Shown in pieces: positions 10,879 to 61,245 of a stretch of 64,000 nt of DNA. The position numbers and the translations under genes were made by a program. The stretch is taken from positions 58,791,554-58,855,553 of the forward strand of contig OX485803.1 in assembly GCA_950295325.1 (NCBI GenBank), given 5' to 3'. The notes beneath the pieces are model-generated. The model searched no databases. It was not told where the DNA came from and saw only the letters and a program-made list of their open reading frames with translations. The DNA comes from Polytrichum commune (taxonomy: Eukaryota; Streptophyta; Polytrichopsida; Polytrichales; Polytrichaceae). How positions within the stretch are numbered: position 1 is the stretch's first letter; each line of letters opens with the position of its first letter.

Positions 10879-15108
<4,230 letters not shown>

Positions 15109-18068: not shown

Positions 18069-19762
18069 CAGTCTAACCTTGTTAGTACAACACTCGTTTA
18101 TACGACACCCTCGATGTTATGACACATTTTTGCTTGTCCAAACTTTTTAGTTCAAAACTCCCTCTTTTATACGACTATGACACTTGATAATACGACATTT
18201 AGAATCTTTGTTTTGTCATATTAAAGAGGTAATCAATGCTAAAATCCCTTTCATCTATGTTATGTACATCTAAAATACATTCATTTTTACTTGGGAACTA
18301 CTTGGGAACTTCACTTATCATTGGGAACTTAATGATAATTAGGGTTACTAGTGTAGAATGGACATGGTTAGGGTTAGAGTGGCCTCCTTCTTATTCTTTT
18401 GTCATATTATGAGCTTGACGATGTTTACAACATGAATGAGACTGGATTGTATTTTAGAGCACATCCTAATAAAACATTAGCACAAGGGAAGGCGAAGGGT
18501 CGGAAGCTACAAAAGGAGCGTGTAACACTTGCTCTTGATGTTAATTCAACTGGAACTGATAAGTCGAAGTTGCTTGTGATTTATACGTCCAAGCAACCAC
18601 AATGTTTTGGAAGGTGGCAACCTCATGAGTATATTCAGTGGCACTCAAATATAACATTTTGGATGAAGGGGGATATATTTGAAGCTTGGATTTTGTTGCT
18701 CAACTATCAGTTCAAAGGCCAAAATCGAAAGGTGATTATGATTTTGGATAATGCATCTTCACATGTTGTTAACTATGCCAAAGTTGGTAAGTCTCATGGT
18801 TTTTCAACCTTGGAATTGAGCAACATGACTTTGATATTCCTTCCTCCCAATGTTACAAGCGTAGTTCAACCTTTGGATCAAGGTACAATAGCATCTTTCA
18901 AAAATTCAGTACAAGAAGAAACTTTTGGAGTAGCTTTTATCACAATGTGATGATGCTACATTGAAGGTGGTGCCCAACATCATACTTCTTATCATGTGAA
19001 GTTATGAAGTATGGAGTGAGTTGGATGCATAGATAGTCAGGTATTGTTGGAGGATGGCGCGTATATTACCTGCGACATGGAATGTTGATTTTGCCCTAGT
19101 TGATGAAATGGAGAAGAATAGAATGCAAGACGAATCATATGGACTTGGTGCTCTGATTTCAAAGTTGCGATTGGGTGATGATGAGATGTCAATCAAGACT
19201 TACATTCAGATGGAAGGGGAAGAGATTACTGAGCTAGAATTGAGCTTTGATGAGTTGGTGGATATTGCCTTGGGAATCAATTATGCACAAGGCTTTGATC
19301 TTAATGTTGATTTACATTCAGTAGATGTGGATGATGTTGCTCCACTTTCAGTAAAGCTTAGTGATGTTAAACGTCATGCATCATTGTTGTCTATTTTCTT
19401 ATTAGACAACTCTTTACATTTTGGTATTAATGAAATGATTAGTTCTCAAAAGCTAATAGGGAATTCAGATAAGATGACAATTGCTAACTTGAGTAGGCAA
19501 CAACAGAGATCTTTGAACTCCTAGTTCAAGAGTTCTTGAGAATATTTGTATTTTTTTGGAGTTATAAGTTATTATTTCATACAATCTATATTGCTTAAAC
19601 TTGTTGTATATATTTTGAAGCTTATATTGCTTATGTTTTTGTATTCCCTTGATAGTATGAAAATTTTACGCCATTTGTCATATTAACTAGAAGATGACAC
19701 CTCAAAAATACGACATTGTTTGTGTTTCCCAAATGTGTCATACTAAAGAGGGAGAACAATAG
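18069..19762 (+). mobile_element. Tigger/pogo-like Tc1-mariner element, decayed
   Basis: The left end, CAGTCTAACCTTGTTAGTAC, follows TA. The right end inverted reads CTATTGTTCTCCCTCTTTAG and also abuts TA. Both resemble the CAGT...CCTCGTTAATACGAC style of Tigger termini, and TATACGACA-like phrases recur just inside. At 1694 bp the element is shorter than full-length Tigger elements. It lacks the N-terminal part of its transposase, so it is an internally deleted and mutated copy. Confidence 0.82.
18399..19524 (+). pseudogene. Tigger-like (DDE_1/CENP-B type) transposase, broken
   Basis: The first open segment (to 18950) has the signature order of a pogo/Tigger DDE domain: YNMNETGLYFR, then GKAKGRKLQKERVTLAL, VIYTSKQPQCF, MILDNASSH and FLPPNVTSVVQPLDQG. 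The acidic residue normally found in the first motif (family form ADETGL) is N here, so the catalytic triad is damaged. The DNASSH and QPLDQG aspartates remain. After 18950 the frame is broken by stops. A second segment, 19054-19524, continues the C-terminal region (start TWNVDFALVDEMEKN). The N-terminal helix-turn-helix part is missing from the 330 bp upstream. The enzyme cannot be active. Confidence 0.88.
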
Positions 19763-43305: not shown

Positions 43306-45180
43306 AGGATACTAGCGCTCGATTGATAGTTTTTTCTTTTGTTACGAATCAAGATCGCATTTTGATTATTCAAATCCTAGTTTTTTTCTAAAATATGGTG
43401 TAAACCCAAAATTGAGGTGACATTTCAGAATACAATGCATACGTCAATTGACATTCGTTTGTGTATTTGAAAATGTCACATGACACTCTGGATTCGAAAT
43501 TGAATGTCGAATGAAATTTGTCAAACATACACATGGATACACAGTTTGGATGTGTGAGATGCTAATTATAAGTAAAGTCACAACTTCCAAGTCATAGATC
43601 AAGTTGAGCAGCCACTGAATTTGTGGGGCGGGGCTAGGCTAGGCTTGCATTATTGAACCCGGGGTAACCCTTGCAGGCTTGTCCTATCCCAACCCCGGCC
43701 CGGATTTTGAATGGGCCGAAGTGTGAGCTAGAAAAAGCTGAGGTTTGTGCAATGGGGATGAGGCCTTGCCTGCCTGCCTGCCTCACATTTTATGAACTGG
43801 CCCACTATTTTCGCCATTACACCCACGATTTATGATAACCTCCCTGCCCACAAGCAGCAGGCAGGATCACAAGAGCCGAAGGCACCCAAACCCCCACATT
43901 AGTAGCCGTGCCCTAGATCCGGGATGCTTTCGTTTGTGAACTCTAAAAACAGACAGGCAGCCTCCACCATTTATTTCTAGTGCGTTTAACATGTGCAGTG
44001 CAAACTGGGCCTCGAGTCCCCTTCGGAACTTGAGTCTCCACTGCGCTCATTTATTAGATCACAGTGCTAATTTGTGTCATAAAAGCTTTACATGGGAGAG
44101 TTGATACCCAGCCCCTTTCACACTATGTGGCTCAACTGAGGAGATTACAGACAGAAAGAAAGAAAGAAAGAAAGAAACCACCTTAATACTACTAAACCAG
44201 ATACAAGGCCAGAATCACGTGAAACATAGGAATATCTAAGATGGGGAACCAACCTCCTACAAAGAGTAATGTACATATATAGAATGGGAGAAGCGAATTG
44301 AGGACTTGCTTCCTACTGTCCTTGAACTGCAAATCGATAAGATTGTCGTTTCTAAACTTCAATTGGAGATTAATGCAAAAGTTACAAGAGGTTAAAGTAA
44401 GTATCAATTTGTTGTCAAGTGATCACGTTGATCCTGTCAATCGGCTTACTTATTGAACTTGGAATGGTGTCTAAGTCACGTGAGCACATGCTCCAATCTC
44501 ATCATAACAATGTCTTGTTGACGTTAAGTTGAAGTCCCACGCCTCTCCTCACGCCGATAGTTGTAATAGTTGTATATTTATGTTTGTGTGGTGGAATTAC
44601 ATACTTTCAAATGTTTTCTAATCATGTCAAAATTCACATGATCCACTCAATTTGAAACGTGCACTTGAAGAATGAGTTAATTTTACAGAGGCCCATCCTT
44701 CTTGACATGATTGACTCAAATGGAAGTTTGTAACTCAAATATCTAGTATAGTGATCATCCATGTGAGAATTGACTATGATTTGTTTTCTCCTTGACACAA
44801 GATGACGTACTTCATATCATTTGAAGCCCACTTAAATCTTGAAACTCACATAAATCAAGAAGTGACGATGACTCATAGACATTGTACATATGTGACTTAG
44901 ACATTGGAAAGTTAAATACAAGCCTTAACTACAAAGGTTAACTACATTGATATGTGCAATTAGGTTGCCCATGCTGATATATCAACACTCCACATTGTTT
45001 GAATAATTACTAAAATAAATATAAAATATAGTTACTACTAAATTAAACTATAGTTTATATACAAAATAATAAACAAAGTTAAGAATTGTTGGAAAATGTT
45101 TTCGCCAAAGGTAATTTGCATGAGGAGAGTGACAACCTTTTCGCAAAGGCAACCTATTTGCACATACCAGTGTACAAACC
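43306..45180. other. intergenic DNA with one dispersed repeat
   Basis: A (GAAA)n run lies at about 44152-44177. The segment 44260-44480 belongs to repeat family R1 (TTGTCGTTTCTAAACTTCAA, then AAAGTTACAAGAGGT). GCCCCTTTCACACTATGTGG near 44110 resembles a solitary terminus of the GGGCC MITE family. A GC-richer patch lies at 43620-43930. No gene recognised. Confidence 0.5.
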
Positions 45181-45183
45181 TTA

Positions 45184-45660
45184 GGGCCACTTCACACTCG
45201 AGCCAAGTGTTGTGACCATGAATATTGTGAGAGCCGAAAAGAAGTGTCCAAAGGTTGTCCCAAGACACTTCCAAAAACATGTAGTGTGAAGTCATATGTG
45301 ACTAGGCCCTCAACCAAATTCTATTTTAATGAATTTCTATTCATGCAAGGTTCTCACACATGATAAAATACTATAAATCAACGATTGTGAGATTTTAGAG
45401 TGCCATGGTCTCCCGGTTTTGTGTTACGCTTACCTCCAAGAGGTAGTTGTTGAAAATAGTCCAAGCAACTATGAAACATGATCCATTTGGTTGCCATGTA
45501 AGAATCCATGTAGACTTTACATCCATCTTGCATTCACTTACTCCATTGGTCCCTCGAGCATAGTGTGAAGCAACCTTGGACCAACTCCATTTCTTTTTAC
45601 CAATGAGAGTGCTTGAAGTGCAACGGTCACAGGCCCTCAGCCTTGTATGTGAAATGGCCT
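45184..45660. mobile_element. Tourist-like MITE, family GGGCC-TTCACAC, copy A
   Basis: The left end GGGCCACTTCACACTCGAGC follows TTA (45181-45183). The right end is inverted and slightly worn (AAATGGCCTCA). The interior matches copy B at 57288 along its whole length, including GTGCCATGGTCTCCC, TACCTCCAAGAGGT and CATCTTGCA. Confidence 0.85.
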
Positions 45661-49559: not shown

Positions 49560-49775
49560 ACGACTTATAGTTAAGATAACGTCAACCTTAAGCCGAGAGG
49601 CAACAACTTAAGTTAAGCGACAAGAACTTAAGCTGAGAGGCAACAACCTAAGCCATTGAGACAACAACTTAAGCTAAAGAGGCAACAACCTAAGCCATTG
49701 AGACAACAACCTTAAGCCGAAGAGGCAACAACCTAAGCTGAAAGGCAAGAACCTAAGCCAAAAGTGCAACATGCC
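49560..49775. repeat. short tandem repeat, AGGCAACAACCTAAGCC-type unit
   Basis: About nine variants of GAGGCAACAACCTAAGCC(A/G) follow one another at about 22-26 bp spacing, some with CATTGAGA in place of the AAGA linker. The array appears to start from an isolated unit near 49545. Confidence 0.85.
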
Positions 49776-50554: not shown

Positions 50555-51540
50555 TTTAAGTTTTGTTCTCTAAGATATGAGCAAAACGAACACCAAGGGT
50601 CCAGACCAAAGAGGTAAGATCCATGGCATGGCCCAAAAGAAAACGTCTTTGGCCTTCAATGAGGACATGGACTTGTGTGGTACTTGTGGATAGTCCCATA
50701 GCTCTTAAAGGAGTGGGTGTTGGTGTCATACACCATGCTCAAACCTTTATTACAGAAGGCATAACAACCCATAAATGTGATAAAGGTAGGAAATACGACA
50801 TGAGGTGCCCCCACCATATTCACCAATACAAGAGGATAAACATCATCCTTCACAACTAGTATAGAGAATCGATTTGGATTGAGAAAATCATGAACTCCAT
50901 GACTTGGTGGTTGAATTACATTGGATAAAGCCATTGCAAGGGTGAAAAATGAACCATGTTGGTCCAAATTTGTCAAGGTTGATGGGAAAAGGAACCAACC
51001 TTAGCGGCATCCAGAAACATGGGTGGCCCAAGAAACTCACAAAGGTATTTGCCATCTTCATGAAACTCTCACGTGTACCATCCAAAGGGGGAATATTCTC
51101 AATAATGTAACAAAATGGAGCAACTTGGTGGTGAAACCAACACTGAATAATTTGAACCAACTCCCTAAAAATAGAGTAATGATCTCCAAAACCTTGGCCC
51201 ACTCCAATAATGAATGCCCTTGGCTAGGCTATCTGGAAATAACAAGTCCACAACACCTAGGTTGTGCAAATCTTCCTCATTGATCAAGGATACATCTTGA
51301 GGCAATAAGGCGAAGGATGTAGAAACAACTGAGGGCGCTAATTGCTCAAGGTAGTGGGCTAGCAACTATTGTATTTGATGCCAAACGGCTTTGTAGCCTA
51401 CAATGTTAGATTAATCAAAAATGTAGTATGTGACATGAAGGCCTACCTGTAGCATGATTGCCAACCTGATGGAAATGGCTCCAAAAAGCTCCACCAAGGT
51501 GATGCCCTTTATAGAGGGTTGTCACCTCACAACTTGTGAG
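50555..51540 (-). pseudogene. retroelement-borne C5-cytosine methyltransferase, inactivated
   Basis: DNA C5 methyltransferases transfer a methyl group to cytosine through a catalytic Cys in a PCQ motif. On the - strand motif I reads ITLVELFGA (about 51500). A conserved lead-in reads LPQDVSLINEEDLHNLG. Motif IV then reads VISR-stop-PSQGHS at about 51211-51240: a stop precedes it and the catalytic Cys is Ser. After a frame change come GQGFGDHYSIFRELVQIIQC and motif VI IIENIPPL (about 51085). Further on are LNPNRFSILVVKDDVYPLVL and VGAPHVVFPTFITF, and a closing RRFLLGHAMDLTSLVW (about 50620), which fits the motif X region. The domain is thus nearly full length but catalytically dead. I rely on motif order and spacing; no search was run. 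Confidence 0.75.
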
Positions 51541-51849
51541 AGCAATAAAAAAAGTTCAATACATGCTAAGACCTCCAATATTAAGTCCTTGACCAGGACT
51601 CACATGTGTGTGTAACTAAGTCAAGTATGCCCATGGTGGGATAGGATCATTGGGATGGCAACAAGGAACTCTGGGAGGTGGCGGATTCTGCACTTCCTTT
51701 GATGCACTTCACCCTGAGTATAAGAAACTCGCCAAATAATGCATGAATTGAGTTGAACAAATCAACACAAATATTGCCATCGTGATCATAGTTGAGGCGG
51801 AAATGTAACAGGCATAGATAATATTTTGCCATCGTTTGTGGACCATCAT

Positions 51850-52700
51850 GCGCGTATCCAAGCCTCCTCGGTTCAAATGTCCAATGCCAAAACCAAATGA
51901 ATATAAAACTTATTGGCCAATCACAATGTCATAATTGGTGGCCCATGTAAGTGTACACTTCAATGAGAAGTAAGCATAGGTAGGGCCATTGCCTATGTAG
52001 AAAATCAATACAAAGCAGCCTTAGTTTGGCCCTTAACATATTCCTTGCCGCCAACCGCAGTGAGAATGGAATATGGACAAAGCTCCAAGTCATCATCTCG
52101 TAAGCCTAACTATTCAACAAGTTTCTTCTCAATATACATAGTGGTTGGGCCCCACTATCTCATAGAACTTGCAATGATTTAATGGTCGGAAGACTCTCAT
52201 GCATATAAACGACTTGAAAATGCCACTATCATTGGCTAATTGCACAACTCCAAGGATAAGGCATTCTTGCTCTCAAGAGGATTTGGCTATAATTGGAGGC
52301 ATGTATGCAGCTCCAAAATGGGCCTTTCAGGTAGAAGACAAGATGGAGGAATCATCTATGCGCTCCTTGAAGGCAATGATAGCCTCACCAACAAGTTGGG
52401 CTCATGAAACTCCCAAATTTATTTACATGACTTGAGAAGGGGAGTCTACCAATGAATGAGCTACAAAAACAATGGGGACAACCATATTGTCCTCCGAAAG
52501 TCAACTGGCTAAGTAAAATACCTTATCCAATTTAAAGCCGGGGAGACATAAATCATGCTCCGAGGACAACGGCAAGTATACAAGCCGGTTAGCCAAATCA
52601 AAATATGTGGGCACTACCAGGAGTTCAGTGTCTTGGACATGTGAAGTATGTGACCTTCCGGAAGTCAATGCTATACCAACAAAACCAAATTATAATCACA
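51850..52700 (-). pseudogene. retroelement protease-like region, decayed
   Basis: Minus-strand frames read ELLVVPTYFDLANRLVYLPL, then NHCKFYEIVGPNHYVY and WATNYDIVIGQ-stop-VLYSFGFGI. The last resembles the YDVILGxxFL segment at the end of retroviral-type aspartic proteases. The active-site DTGA/DSG motif could not be read with confidence. Several stops and shifts interrupt the region. Confidence 0.45.
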
Positions 52701-52739
52701 TACAAGCCTGACCAATTTCATTAGTCGGCCCAACATGAC

Positions 52740-53880
52740 GAGCCTTCGAAGTGCTTTGTATTTCAGGCAGGATGGCAAAAGTTTTTTCCTTTGTATGTGC
52801 TCGAGTAGTTGTTGCTTCGTTGACTCCTCTGGTTTGGACTTTTGTTTCTCAGGAACCTACTTCTTCCCACCATGAAAGTGGTTAGGCAAAGGCCCGTATT
52901 GAAGCCATTCGACCACTAGATGTAGGGATGGATTTCTTTGGTTTCTTCTTGGCATCTATGGTTGGTGGAAAAACCAATCACCCTACCTCTTTGTTGCAGT
53001 GAGCATTGTCAATCTTCTCTACCACTAGGAAGGCCTGAGCAAGTGTAGCTCGGCCATTGAACTTGTACTAAGTAAGCTTCGGCCTCGCCAACTCTTGCAA
53101 TTTCTTCTTTGCTTCAAGATGTACATATTTACAAGTTGAGCTTGTATGAAGGCATCTCTTGTCTTTCAAGCAAACGTCTCTAGTCTAGCATACATAGTAC
53201 GGGGGGTATCATCCATCTCCTTTTGGAAAACATCGTTGGCTTGCATTTGATTACAAAAAAATGCATGTGAATTTCCTTTTTCAGATATCATAAGAATACC
53301 TCCAAGGTCAAAATGTAGGAGGTTCTCCCACCTCTTCAATGGCAGCTTGGGTTACTCTCATAAACTGAGTCATGAACAATTTAGGAGCCACCCGCTTAGC
53401 TACAACAATAGTTCTCATTGATGAAGGTTTGTCCTCAACATGTTTTTTCTTGGTTTACTTGCTATTTCAATCATTAGCTCCAAAATATTAGAGCTTTCTT
53501 TGATGGTTGTGATGAGCTCCATCCGTTGAGTCTAGTAGGACTCCACCTTCTTGAGGTCTTCAATGTTGGCTACATTCCTCTCTTTATAGGCCAAAAACAC
53601 CTTGAACTCTAAGTGTTGTAGCAACAACGTAAAAATTTTATCAGTCATTGAAATTGGACATGCAATGCTTCGTCTCCCGCATCCAAGTTGCGAAACTGGA
53701 TCCTCCACTCATTGAGGGGGATGGCACAAGCTCTCCCTAAGAACTTGCCTTGGGTGCCGGAGCAATTGTCATTCTTGATGGCCTCAAATGAATGGAAAAC
53801 GCAACCTTAAGTAGTCTGAGCAAATTCCAACTTCGATTGAGGCCCAAAAGCGTTGTCGAGATCCACCAAAGGGGCCCCGG
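52740..53880 (-). pseudogene. retroelement gag-like region, decayed
   Basis: Minus-strand segments read KFLGRACAIPLNEWRIQFRN, then MTDKIFTLLLQHLEFKVFLA followed by YKERNVANIEDL, and later KPSSMRTIVVAKRVAPKLFM. The helical, charged composition and its position before the protease-like region fit gag. Stops are frequent. The start of the frame was not found. Confidence 0.5.
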
Positions 53881-53900
53881 CATCGGATTCTTCATCACCA

Positions 53901-54528: not shown

Positions 54529-54530
<2 letters not shown>
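53901..54530. other. possible 5' part of the retroelement, unassigned
   Basis: A minus-strand frame at 54175-54366 is open for 63 codons but shows no motif. No primer-binding site or LTR edge could be identified. Confidence 0.35.

Positions 54531-54595
<65 letters not shown>
54531..54595. repeat. (GA)n microsatellite
   Basis: About 32 uninterrupted GA units. It explains the leucine/serine-only minus-strand frame that crosses it. Confidence 0.97.
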
Positions 54596-56764: not shown

Positions 56765-57280
56765 GTGATAAACCAACCAAACAACAACCACATACCTTAC
56801 TACTTATAAGGTAGAGGGTGCTTAAACGAACACTTTTAGCAATTTAGCTTATTTTTGGAGTCCTTTTGGATTAGTGTTGATGGATGATTGGATTAGACAT
56901 AGTAGAAAAAAAAATGATAAATTGCACACCATGTGAATGTACTACAAATTAATGAAGTCCCCTAGCTTACTAAATTCATCCCTAGACCCACTTTCTTTTT
57001 TACATTGGAAACAACTCCCAAAATTGTTCTGACACTTGTTCAAAACTGTCCCCGTTTTTTCATCCCAAACCAATCCCACTTTCTCCCAAAACCACCCCCA
57101 CCTTTTGTCCAAACCGCCACTGCACTAAAACCAACCTCTTTACTTATGAGTATCTTCATTTAGGCATCTTGCATGACTGGCACCCGACCCCTCGTACCAC
57201 CCGCCCTTCCTTCCTCCATCACCCACACACAACAAGCAAGTAAACACAATTCAAAAGATCCTAATCCCGTACGTGGAACA
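56765..57280. other. intergenic DNA, nothing recognised
   Basis: Contains a TAAGGTAGAGGGTGCTTAAA phrase near 56808, the inverted end motif of repeat family R2, and a C-rich stretch at about 57030-57220. No gene recognised. Confidence 0.5.
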
Positions 57281-57287
57281 CATCTTA

Positions 57288-57786
57288 GGGCCACTGCACA
57301 TACGAGCCAAGAGCCATGACCATGAAATCGTAAGAGCCCAAAAGAAAGTGTTCAAGGCCGTCCCAAGACACCTCCAAAATCATGCAGTGTGGTCACGGAT
57401 CCTCAAGTGTAGTGTGAAGCCATATGTGACCAGGCCCTCGATCAAATGCTACTTCAATGAATTTTTCTTCATGTGGGTCCTTGCACATGATAAAATAGAA
57501 TAAATCAACGGTTGTGAGCATTCAGAGTGCCATGGTCTCCCAATTTTGTGTTAGGCCTACCTCCAAGAGGTGGTTTTTGAAAATAGTCCAAGTGACCATG
57601 AAACATGATCCATTCGATGCCATGTAGGAATGCCATGTAGACTCTACATCCATCTTGCAGCCACATACTCCGTTGGTCCCTCAAGCGTGGTGTGAAGCAA
57701 ACTTGGACCGGCTCCGCCTTTTCCACCAATGAAAGCGCTTGCAGTGGACTGATCACGGGCTCTCAGTCCCGTGTGTGAAGTGGCCC
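57288..57786. mobile_element. Tourist-like MITE, family GGGCC-TTCACAC, copy B
   Basis: Starts GGGCCACTGCACATACGAGC after TTA (57285-57287) and ends AAGTGGCCC before TTA (57787-57789). 499 bp, aligning along its whole length with copy A. The interior contains GTGCCATGGTCTCCC and TACCTCCAAGAGGTGG. No transposase. Confidence 0.92.
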
Positions 57787-60350: not shown

Positions 60351-60656
60351 CATGAGTGTTGTTGTGCAAATGTAATCGGTAGAAGTTGGAGAACATGGAA
60401 AAACAAAGCAAACCACACCCACATACCTTAAAATTAATATGCACCCCATAGCCCATCCATCCGCCTGCAACGGGGGATCCAGCAGGTTGACTTTGTGTGC
60501 AAGCCGATGGTAATTTCCCCAGTACGGAGGCATACAGGAGCCCAATCCCACCCAGTGCCCATTATTTCACGCATCTCATCAGGCTATGGTGGGATGGAAC
60601 GGCTACATAATATTGTTCATACTTCTTTAGGGCAAAGGGGAAGGGCTTTAGGTTTA

Positions 60657-61245
60657 GGGCCACTTCACACACAAGGCTGAAGGCCCTTGACCATGGCAAT
60701 GTAAGAGCTCTCATTGGTCGAAAAGGTGGAGACCGTCCAAGTTCACTTCACACTAGGAGGTGAAGGCCTAAAGGCCCAAAGAAAAGTTCGTGGATGAAAA
60801 GTCTACATGGAGTCCTACATGGCTAGTTGTGGATAAGGGTGCATGGTCTACCGGAATTTGCGTCAGGCCCACCTCCAAGAGGTGGGCTTGACGCAAATTC
60901 CGGGAGACCATGATTTTTTTAATATTTTTTCCAGCAGGACATATTTCAGGACAGACTGCATGGCAGATTCCAAGACATATTCTAGTACAGACAAACACCA
61001 CCAAGTAGTTATCTTGAATTGATAAACTTGGAGACATATTATATTAAACCAAACCCTCCCCTCTTTTTCCGCCAACAAAATATGCAATGGTCCCGCAACA
61101 TGGTTCATTCTCACTTCACACTATGCTTGAGGGCCAAAGACTACATAAAATGGCTTTCCAACACCCATGGTACGGCCTTTGGATGAGAGTCAAGGGTCCT
61201 CACCATTACAAGGTCACGGCTCTTGGCTCATGTGTGAAGTGGCCC
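60657..61245. mobile_element. Tourist-like MITE, family GGGCC-TTCACAC, copy C, rearranged
   Basis: Starts GGGCCACTTCACACACAAGG after TTA (60654-60656) and ends GAAGTGGCCC before TTA (61246-61248). 589 bp. The left half follows copies A and B up to ACCTCCAAGAGGT, where a long hairpin replaces the expected continuation. Between about 60913 and 61095 the sequence is unrelated to A and B. The motif CTTCACACTATGCTTGAGGG (about 61114) is the inverse of the corresponding part of A and B. Confidence 0.88.
60842..60912. repeat. 34-bp-arm hairpin inside MITE copy C
   Basis: Arms 60842-60875 and 60879-60912 pair with two mismatches around a 3-nt loop (CAA). The core ACCTC-CAA-GAGGT is present in sibling copies A and B as a short palindrome only. 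In this copy the left flank, including CATGGTCT and CCGGAATTTGCGTCA, has been repeated in inverted form on the right. Confidence 0.93.

What the first reader, a model, noticed from the sequence alone, without database searches (positions are those of the whole stretch)
50555..53900. LTR retroelement relic that carried its own C5-cytosine DNA methyltransferase
Seen: on the - strand a gag/protease-like region is followed by a nearly full-length C5 methyltransferase domain with motif I (VELFGA), a motif IV site, motif VI (ENIPPL) and a motif X-like LLGHAMDL, in order. Known: C5 methyltransferases captured by retrotransposons have been reported in some algae and dinoflagellates, as I recall. Inference: this plant lineage has or had such an element, which could have methylated its own or host DNA. 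The absence of a recognisable polymerase leaves the full architecture open.
Basis: partly seen in the sequence, partly recalled or inferred. Interest (0 to 1): 0.88.

Follow-up and report, generated by a model that had tools for sequence, protein, structure and literature searches.

The report
Plant retrotransposon carrying a DNA methyltransferase
The window holds the decayed remains of a plant jumping gene that carried its own DNA-methylating enzyme, and better preserved relatives in the same genome show how such elements are built and suggest that they mark their own DNA.

Summary
Window 53872-50574 (-) is a broken Gag-protease-C5 methyltransferase (DNMT) frame; in pieces it follows residues 48-1271 of a 1386-residue polyprotein from the same genome (best E 8.9e-55). 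Direct Pfam and database searches of the relic fail, so the link rests on better preserved copies. The relic has lost the catalytic Cys; no LTRs and no reverse transcriptase/integrase were found in the window.

The host genome gave 123 scored PF00145 matches. Of 26 that I chose and inspected, 25 are Ty3/gypsy-type elements: ORF1 Gag-PR-DNMT, ORF2 RT-RNaseH-integrase-PHD finger. In 25 of 25 a TAG-CARYYA leaky-stop motif separates the ORFs, putting the DNMT on the Gag side. In 9 of 10 copies tried the repeats run A-body-B-A-B, with TG...CA ends and 4-bp target duplications. In those 9 a 13-nt or longer primer site is complementary to the element's own repeat A and covaries between two subfamilies.

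The repeat layout and gypsy+DNMT3 content match the charophyte KnitGypsy-Dnmt3 (PMC5890265); named relatives lie in liverworts. Most likely role, inferred only: methylating its own cDNA.

The parts
52915..53872 (-). Gag remnant (P0001 residues 48-360), several frame changes
   Evidence: tblastn pieces, E 1.2e-21
51631..52740 (-). Linker and aspartic-protease region remnant (P0001 residues 531-909)
   Evidence: tblastn E 7.8e-25
50574..51503 (-). C5 methyltransferase remnant (P0001 residues about 953-1271), five frame changes plus stops
51477..51503 (-). Motif I, ITLVELFGA
   Evidence: P0001 reads IVLVEIFGG
51211..51231 (-). Motif IV remnant, *PSQGHS where P0001 reads WPCQGHS; catalytic Cys lost
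51083..51100 (-). Motif VI, ENIPPL
50580..50705 (-). Motif IX/X region ending in LLGHAMDL..GVRFA
   Evidence: tblastn 64% identity over 42 residues

Best explanation
The finding is an old, dead, truncated copy of a Ty3/gypsy-type retrotransposon group that carries a DNMT3-like C5 methyltransferase, with young copies still in the genome. SHOWN by sequence: ORF1 = Gag with a CCHC zinc knuckle, aspartic protease, DNMT; ORF2 = RT, RNaseH, integrase, PHD finger; one in-frame TAG in a CARYYA context between them; split direct repeats A-body-B-A-B with TG...CA ends and 4-bp target duplications; a site abutting repeat A that is complementary to a site inside A. INFERRED: ribosomes mostly stop after ORF1, so every Gag-PR-DNMT chain brings a methyltransferase into the particle while RT and integrase come from occasional readthrough; reverse transcription is self-primed by the 5' part of the mRNA; the cDNA is joined end to end or otherwise permuted and opened at the B.GC.A palindrome GACAGCTGTC by the DDE integrase; the PHD finger biases insertion by reading the histone H3 tail; the DNMT methylates the new cDNA, probably at CG, so that it arrives already marked. 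The window copy later lost its catalytic Cys, its frame, ORF2 and its repeats.
For: Relic homology, best E 8.9e-55. Domains of both ORFs of one copy. 123 PF00145 matches scored of 352 candidates; 25 of 26 inspected stretches match ORF1 and ORF2. TAG-CARYYA in 25 of 25: CAATCA 12, CAATTA 12, CAGTTA 1 (motif as given in PMC5382211, passage). A1/A2 repeat identity 99.3-99.8% in 5 of 6 A copies and 94.6% in one, 99.4-100% in three B copies. Split repeats and 4-bp duplications in 9 of 10 copies tried, duplications read by eye. Self-complement of 13-15 nt in 9 of 9 copies; none of 2000 control windows from E1 exceeds 10 nt; at two positions the subfamilies differ on both sides of the pairing. Motif IV Cys-Gln in 37 of 39 domain rows, the other two having a gap there. 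All 50 fold matches listed (of 481) are DNMT3 entries; DNMT3A tops the PDB sequence hits. DNMT pN/pS 0.25 for 30 pairs at pS 0.1-0.3. A copy of the relic's own old subfamily is followed by RNaseH-integrase.
Against: No methylation, expression or activity data for this host. The nearest tested enzyme, KnitGypsy-Dnmt3, gave no methylation in yeast; the authors call this inconclusive because DNMT3B failed too, while the SymbioDIRS enzymes worked (PMC5890265 section 10). For the closest DNMT pairs pN/pS is 0.47-0.53, and values between subfamilies are saturated. Elements have a higher CpG ratio than their flanks in 4 of 6 copies (0.65-0.66 against 0.53-0.83), so there is no footprint of heavy self-methylation. 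A plain two-LTR-circle model also predicts A-B-A-body-B, not seen in 9 copies. The related old copy on C2 lacks DNMT and RT, so in the relic's own subfamily the DNMT-RT link is not shown. The 25 stop contexts come from two subfamilies and are not independent. Inspected copies were chosen by me, not drawn at random.
Confidence: 0.62

Rival explanations
1. A host or bacterial C5 methyltransferase pseudogene that lies by chance beside an unrelated gag fragment.
For: The relic alone hits nothing in Pfam or the protein database; no RT found in the window.
Against: Collinear Gag-PR-DNMT match to one polyprotein; the same order followed by RT in 25 of 26 inspected stretches. The one exception reads as a different, DRM-like exon (label recalled).
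Confidence: 0.02
2. The element DNMT acts mainly on host chromatin or another host target (for example to silence competitors), not on its own cDNA.
For: The Gag-side position would give many enzyme molecules (inference); DNMT3-like fold.
Against: Gag-PR products of such elements normally assemble in particles where cDNA is made (established biology, recalled); nuclear-import signals were not tested.
Confidence: 0.2
3. The DNMT domain has become a structural or nucleic-acid-binding part of Gag and is no longer catalytic.
For: ORF1 is about 50-57% identical between subfamilies against about 74-89% for ORF2. KnitGypsy-Dnmt3 was inactive in yeast (called inconclusive there).
Against: Cys-Gln of motif IV in 37 of 39 rows, the other two gapped; motif VI ENV in 32 of 39; AHRxR in 37 of 39; purifying selection at intermediate distance.
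Confidence: 0.18
4. The element is a DIRS-type (tyrosine-recombinase) retrotransposon.
For: A-body-B-A-B repeats, the arrangement the 2018 paper calls typical of DIRS.
Against: DDE integrase (rve, H2C2) and no tyrosine recombinase among the Pfam hits of both ORFs; TG...CA ends with 4-bp duplications in 9 copies.
Confidence: 0.02

Closest known systems
KnitGypsy-Dnmt3 of the charophyte Klebsormidium nitens (PMC5890265)
   Same: Gypsy domains with a non-rearranged DNMT3-related domain, DIRS-like repeat layout, purifying selection (section 9)
   Different: The paper places the DNMT in the Pol ORF; here it is on the Gag-PR side of a leaky-stop motif. The words PHD and readthrough are absent from that main text. 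Sequence kinship not tested.
SymbioDIRS-Dnmt3 of Symbiodinium (PMC5890265)
   Same: DNMT3-type domain in a retrotransposon with A-coding-B-A-B repeats
   Different: Tyrosine recombinase there; DDE integrase and target duplications here
Tcn1 and Tf1/Sushi self-primed Ty3/gypsy elements (PMC6317226, PMC4600332, passages)
   Same: Primer site complementary to the element's own 5' sequence
   Different: The plant Tcn1 elements are chromoviruses; here a PHD finger ends ORF2 and the repeats are split
Liverwort hypothetical proteins: Marchantia polymorpha P0018 and P0022, Calypogeia fissa P0077
   Same: Same DNMT type; CCHC and DSGA motifs upstream of it in P0018, RT after it in P0022
   Different: 40-47% identical to the query parts used; their repeats and stop contexts were not examined; P0077 is a 329-residue record

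Membership tests
C5 cytosine methyltransferase (PF00145) | Profile match above cut-off | tested here: met
   Met by P0001, 45.5 bits against cut-off 22; not met by the relic itself
C5 cytosine methyltransferase (PF00145) | Catalytic Cys in motif IV | tested here: met
   Cys-Gln in 37 of 39 rows, two gapped; the relic has PSQ
DNMT3 subgroup | Closest fold and sequence to DNMT3 | tested here: met
   All 50 rows listed of 481 fold matches are DNMT3 entries, for a model of the homolog P0048; DNMT3A first in PDB by sequence, HaeIII and HhaI also hit. No tree against other DNMT classes was made.
DRM (plant rearranged DNMT3) | Rearranged motif order (recalled) | tested here: not met
   Order I, IV, VI, VIII, X in the alignment
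Ty3/gypsy | Order PR-RT-RNaseH-INT | tested here: met
Ty3/gypsy | RT phylogeny within Ty3 | not tested
   No reference RT set was aligned
Canonical LTR retrotransposon | A full direct LTR at each end | tested here: not met
   5' end has A only, 3' end B-A-B, in 9 of 10 copies tried
DIRS | Tyrosine recombinase; no target duplication (recalled) | tested here: not met
KnitGypsy-Dnmt3 | Gypsy domains + DNMT3 + DIRS-like repeats | tested here: met
KnitGypsy-Dnmt3 | DNMT in the Pol ORF | tested here: not met
   DNMT is in ORF1, before the TAG, in 25 of 25 copies
KnitGypsy-Dnmt3 | Common descent with the K. nitens sequences | not testable with these tools
   No record named Klebsormidium among the rows listed

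The most novel reading that the evidence does not exclude
A distinct Ty3-like group in bryophyte-type plants combines self-primed reverse transcription, integration of a circularly permuted cDNA by a DDE integrase (giving DIRS-like split repeats with target duplications), a PHD-finger integrase and a DNMT made in Gag amounts through a leaky stop, so that each new copy enters the genome already methylated.
Probability: 0.33. Interest if true: 0.88.

Novelty: new variant of a known kind. Interest (0 to 1): 0.72.

Why it matters
[quoted passage not shown] Named records from the liverworts Marchantia and Calypogeia and this genome with near-identical repeats show that such elements are not confined to algae. 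Why an element should carry the mark used to silence it becomes testable in these plants. The covarying primer site and split repeats also suggest how an integrase element could come by a DIRS-like layout.

Tried and rejected
Rejected: the 45174-45659 / 57278-57785 direct repeats as the relic's LTRs (a dispersed ~500-bp repeat, 5620 first-look candidates of which 40 were scored; at most 14-nt likeness to the element repeats). Set aside: tRNA priming (the site of subfamily A does not begin with TGG and both subfamilies match their own repeat A; no tRNA set was compared). Weakened: the symmetric two-LTR circle (one permutation only). Led nowhere: direct Pfam, direct protein search, CpG depletion as a footprint, a Polytrichum genome literature search. 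Host not identified: seven contigs of 42-78 Mb make up nearly all of 408 Mb, which recalled n = 7 mosses to me; a DRM-like exon fits streptophytes at large, so that the host is a land plant is likely but not shown. A test with a land-plant family (PF03018) did not complete.

Papers: PMC5890265, sections 9 and 10 whole and passages; passages only of PMC5784723, PMC12344493, PMC6338049, PMC6317226, PMC2864245, PMC4600332, PMC5382211; every other paper only as a search listing. On prior reports: the 2018 title phrase gave 20 papers, 19 listed, none on bryophytes by title; the rows listed (20 of 70; 9 of 9; 5 of 5; 2 of 2; 25 of 2807) showed no such element in mosses or liverworts by title or abstract start. 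This is no proof that none is in print.

Full report
What was checked. The relic is too decayed for direct recognition: Pfam on ten single ORFs and on three strings of joined pieces gave no PF00145, and a database search with the methyltransferase string scored none of 206 candidates at E <= 10. The host genome gave the answer: PF00145 had 123 matches scored of 352 candidates in G000 (407.8 Mb, 64 contigs), many in open frames of up to 1386 residues (counts there are lower bounds). ORF1 of one copy (P0001) then matched the window in pieces from residue 48 to 1271 at 53872-50580, - strand; best E 8.9e-55; residues 361-530 unmatched. The last piece (residues 1230-1271) is 64% identical.

State of the relic. 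Gag, protease and DNMT are present in fragments. The DNMT part changes frame five times and carries stops. Motif IV is *PSQGHS against WPCQGHS, so the catalytic Cys is gone. No trace of ORF2 was found: best P0002 hit E 1.1, and six ORF2-type proteins found nothing at E 0.1 in 44.0-50.6 and 54.0-58.0 kb. The relic DNA matches five other places at 71-77% identity (C7, C2, two on C5, C6); the remaining listed rows are short hits to the protease stretch or the motif X stretch elsewhere. The relic thus has an old subfamily of its own. On C2 the Gag-PR part is followed at once by RNaseH and integrase (P0002 residues 410-779, E 4e-48 and 1e-39); DNMT and RT are absent there.

Anatomy of better preserved copies. 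Six copies (E1-E6), chosen for long frames, were read; in five both ORFs are open, in E4 ORF2 is broken. In L021 (the E1 copy) ORF1 has 1386 residues: no Pfam Gag hit, a CCHC motif, an aspartic protease below its cut-off (E 0.001-0.002), and DNA_methylase (45.5 bits, cut-off 22). ORF2 has 1047 residues: RVT_1, RNaseH, integrase zinc finger, rve and a C-terminal PHD finger (40.9 bits, cut-off 24). Of 20 further stretches 19 match both ORFs; one (L037) does not and reads as a host DRM-type exon (label from memory). Two subfamilies appear in the 25: A (12 copies, about 89-99% to P0001 in ORF1) and B (13 copies, about 50-57% in ORF1 apart from short pieces, 74-89% in ORF2).

Recoding. In 25 of 25 copies the RT frame begins after a TAG followed by CAATCA (12), CAATTA (12) or CAGTTA (1). 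All fit CARYYA, the type I readthrough motif of plant viruses (passage in PMC5382211). The copies come from two subfamilies, so these are few independent events, but the variation stays within the motif. Several copies have further stops inside ORF1. The 15 homologs most like P0001 (P0003-P0017) end 81-140 residues after the DNMT and list no RT, in keeping with the same split. The DNMT is therefore on the Gag side.

Ends. In E1-E6 and three B copies the layout is A1-body-B1-GC-A2-B2 with TG at the start of A1, CA at the end of B2 and 4-bp duplications (GAAG, TTAT, CATC, TAGC, ACTT, TCTT; TGTC, GATG, GGTT), read by eye. For a tenth copy (L050/L051) the ends were not in the stretches fetched. 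A G-rich run stands just before B1, and B1-GC-A2 contains GACAGCTGTC. A1 and A2 are 99.3-99.8% identical in 5 of 6 A copies, 94.6% in E4 and 99.4-100% in the three B copies. The K. nitens element has a DIRS-like repeat structure with gypsy domains too (section 9); no mechanism is given in the sections I read.

Self-priming. At the end of A lies ACTTGACAACAAT (A) or ACTTGGCAAGAAT (B); the exact complement lies inside A at 189-201 or 126-138. Two positions differ between subfamilies, on both sides of the pairing. None of 2000 random 40-nt windows of E1 has a complement longer than 10 nt in A1. Self-priming was shown for Tf1, proposed for Tj1 and predicted for the plant Tcn1 clade (passages). Taken together: cDNA of the form B.A-body-B.A, joined end to end (giving A2|B2) and opened at the palindrome in one B.A copy, yields the observed order. 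A symmetric version should also give A-B-A-body-B, not seen in 9 copies, so an asymmetric, DIRS-like step is likelier. The mechanism in this paragraph is inference.

The enzyme. In 39 aligned domain rows motif IV Cys-Gln is present in 37 and gapped in two, ENV of motif VI in 32 and AHRxR in 37. A model of the homolog P0048 on 27 returned proteins (mean pLDDT 77, pTM 0.74) matches DNMT3 entries in all 50 rows listed of 481 (TM by target 0.39-0.78). By sequence DNMT3A is first in the PDB (E 1e-6); HaeIII and HhaI methylases also hit. For pairs at pS 0.1-0.3, DNMT pN/pS is 0.25 (30 pairs; 18 of 25 copies usable) and RT 0.12 (10 pairs; 17 of 25 usable); for closer DNMT pairs it is 0.47-0.53, and pairs between subfamilies are saturated. 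Pairs are not independent. The PHD finger is nearest to CHD4, PHF12, Lid/KDM5 and PHF21A fingers; that these read the H3 tail is from memory.

Spread. Named homologs are Marchantia polymorpha gene models (one with RT, P0022), M. paleacea and Calypogeia fissa; most other rows are unnamed environmental contigs, and P0044 bears a bacterial MAG label. In P0037 the DNMT lies between RNaseH and integrase, and in the record P0042 it stands before the integrase without RT; both end in a PHD finger. So the DNMT has moved or was captured more than once. In a FastTree of 79 DNMT domains, rooted at midpoint, subfamilies A and B lie with 19 environmental or mislabelled rows in a clade of 26 (support 0.98) without the named liverwort rows.

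What it most likely does. The best reading is self-methylation of cDNA in the particle; it is inference. Against it stand the inactive K. nitens domain in yeast, called inconclusive by its authors (section 10), and the CpG ratios: elements 0.65-0.66, flanks 0.53-0.83, relic 0.37, window 0.43. After reading section 10 I lowered the main confidence from 0.68 to 0.62 and the novel case from 0.35 to 0.33, and raised the non-catalytic rival from 0.15 to 0.18.

Noticed in passing
window 45174-45659, 57278-57785, 60653-60912: Copies of a dispersed ~500-bp repeat that is very frequent in the genome (5620 first-look candidates, 40 scored, 45 matches), in places with an adjoining copy, same or opposite strand.
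   Followed up: partly
window 18378-18950 (+): 190-residue frame with a DDE_1 (PF03184) transposase match, E 2.4e-23.
   Followed up: partly
window about 54530-54595: Long CT microsatellite just upstream of the relic.
   Followed up: no
window 49587-49771: Array of ~20-bp units downstream of the relic.
   Followed up: no
window 12285-13064 (+): 259-residue frame without a Pfam match; perhaps part of a host gene.
   Followed up: no
L024-L043: ORF1 is far more diverged between the two subfamilies than ORF2, which could mean module exchange or fast evolution of Gag-DNMT.
   Followed up: partly
P0037, P0042: Relatives with the DNMT next to the integrase instead of after the protease.
   Followed up: partly
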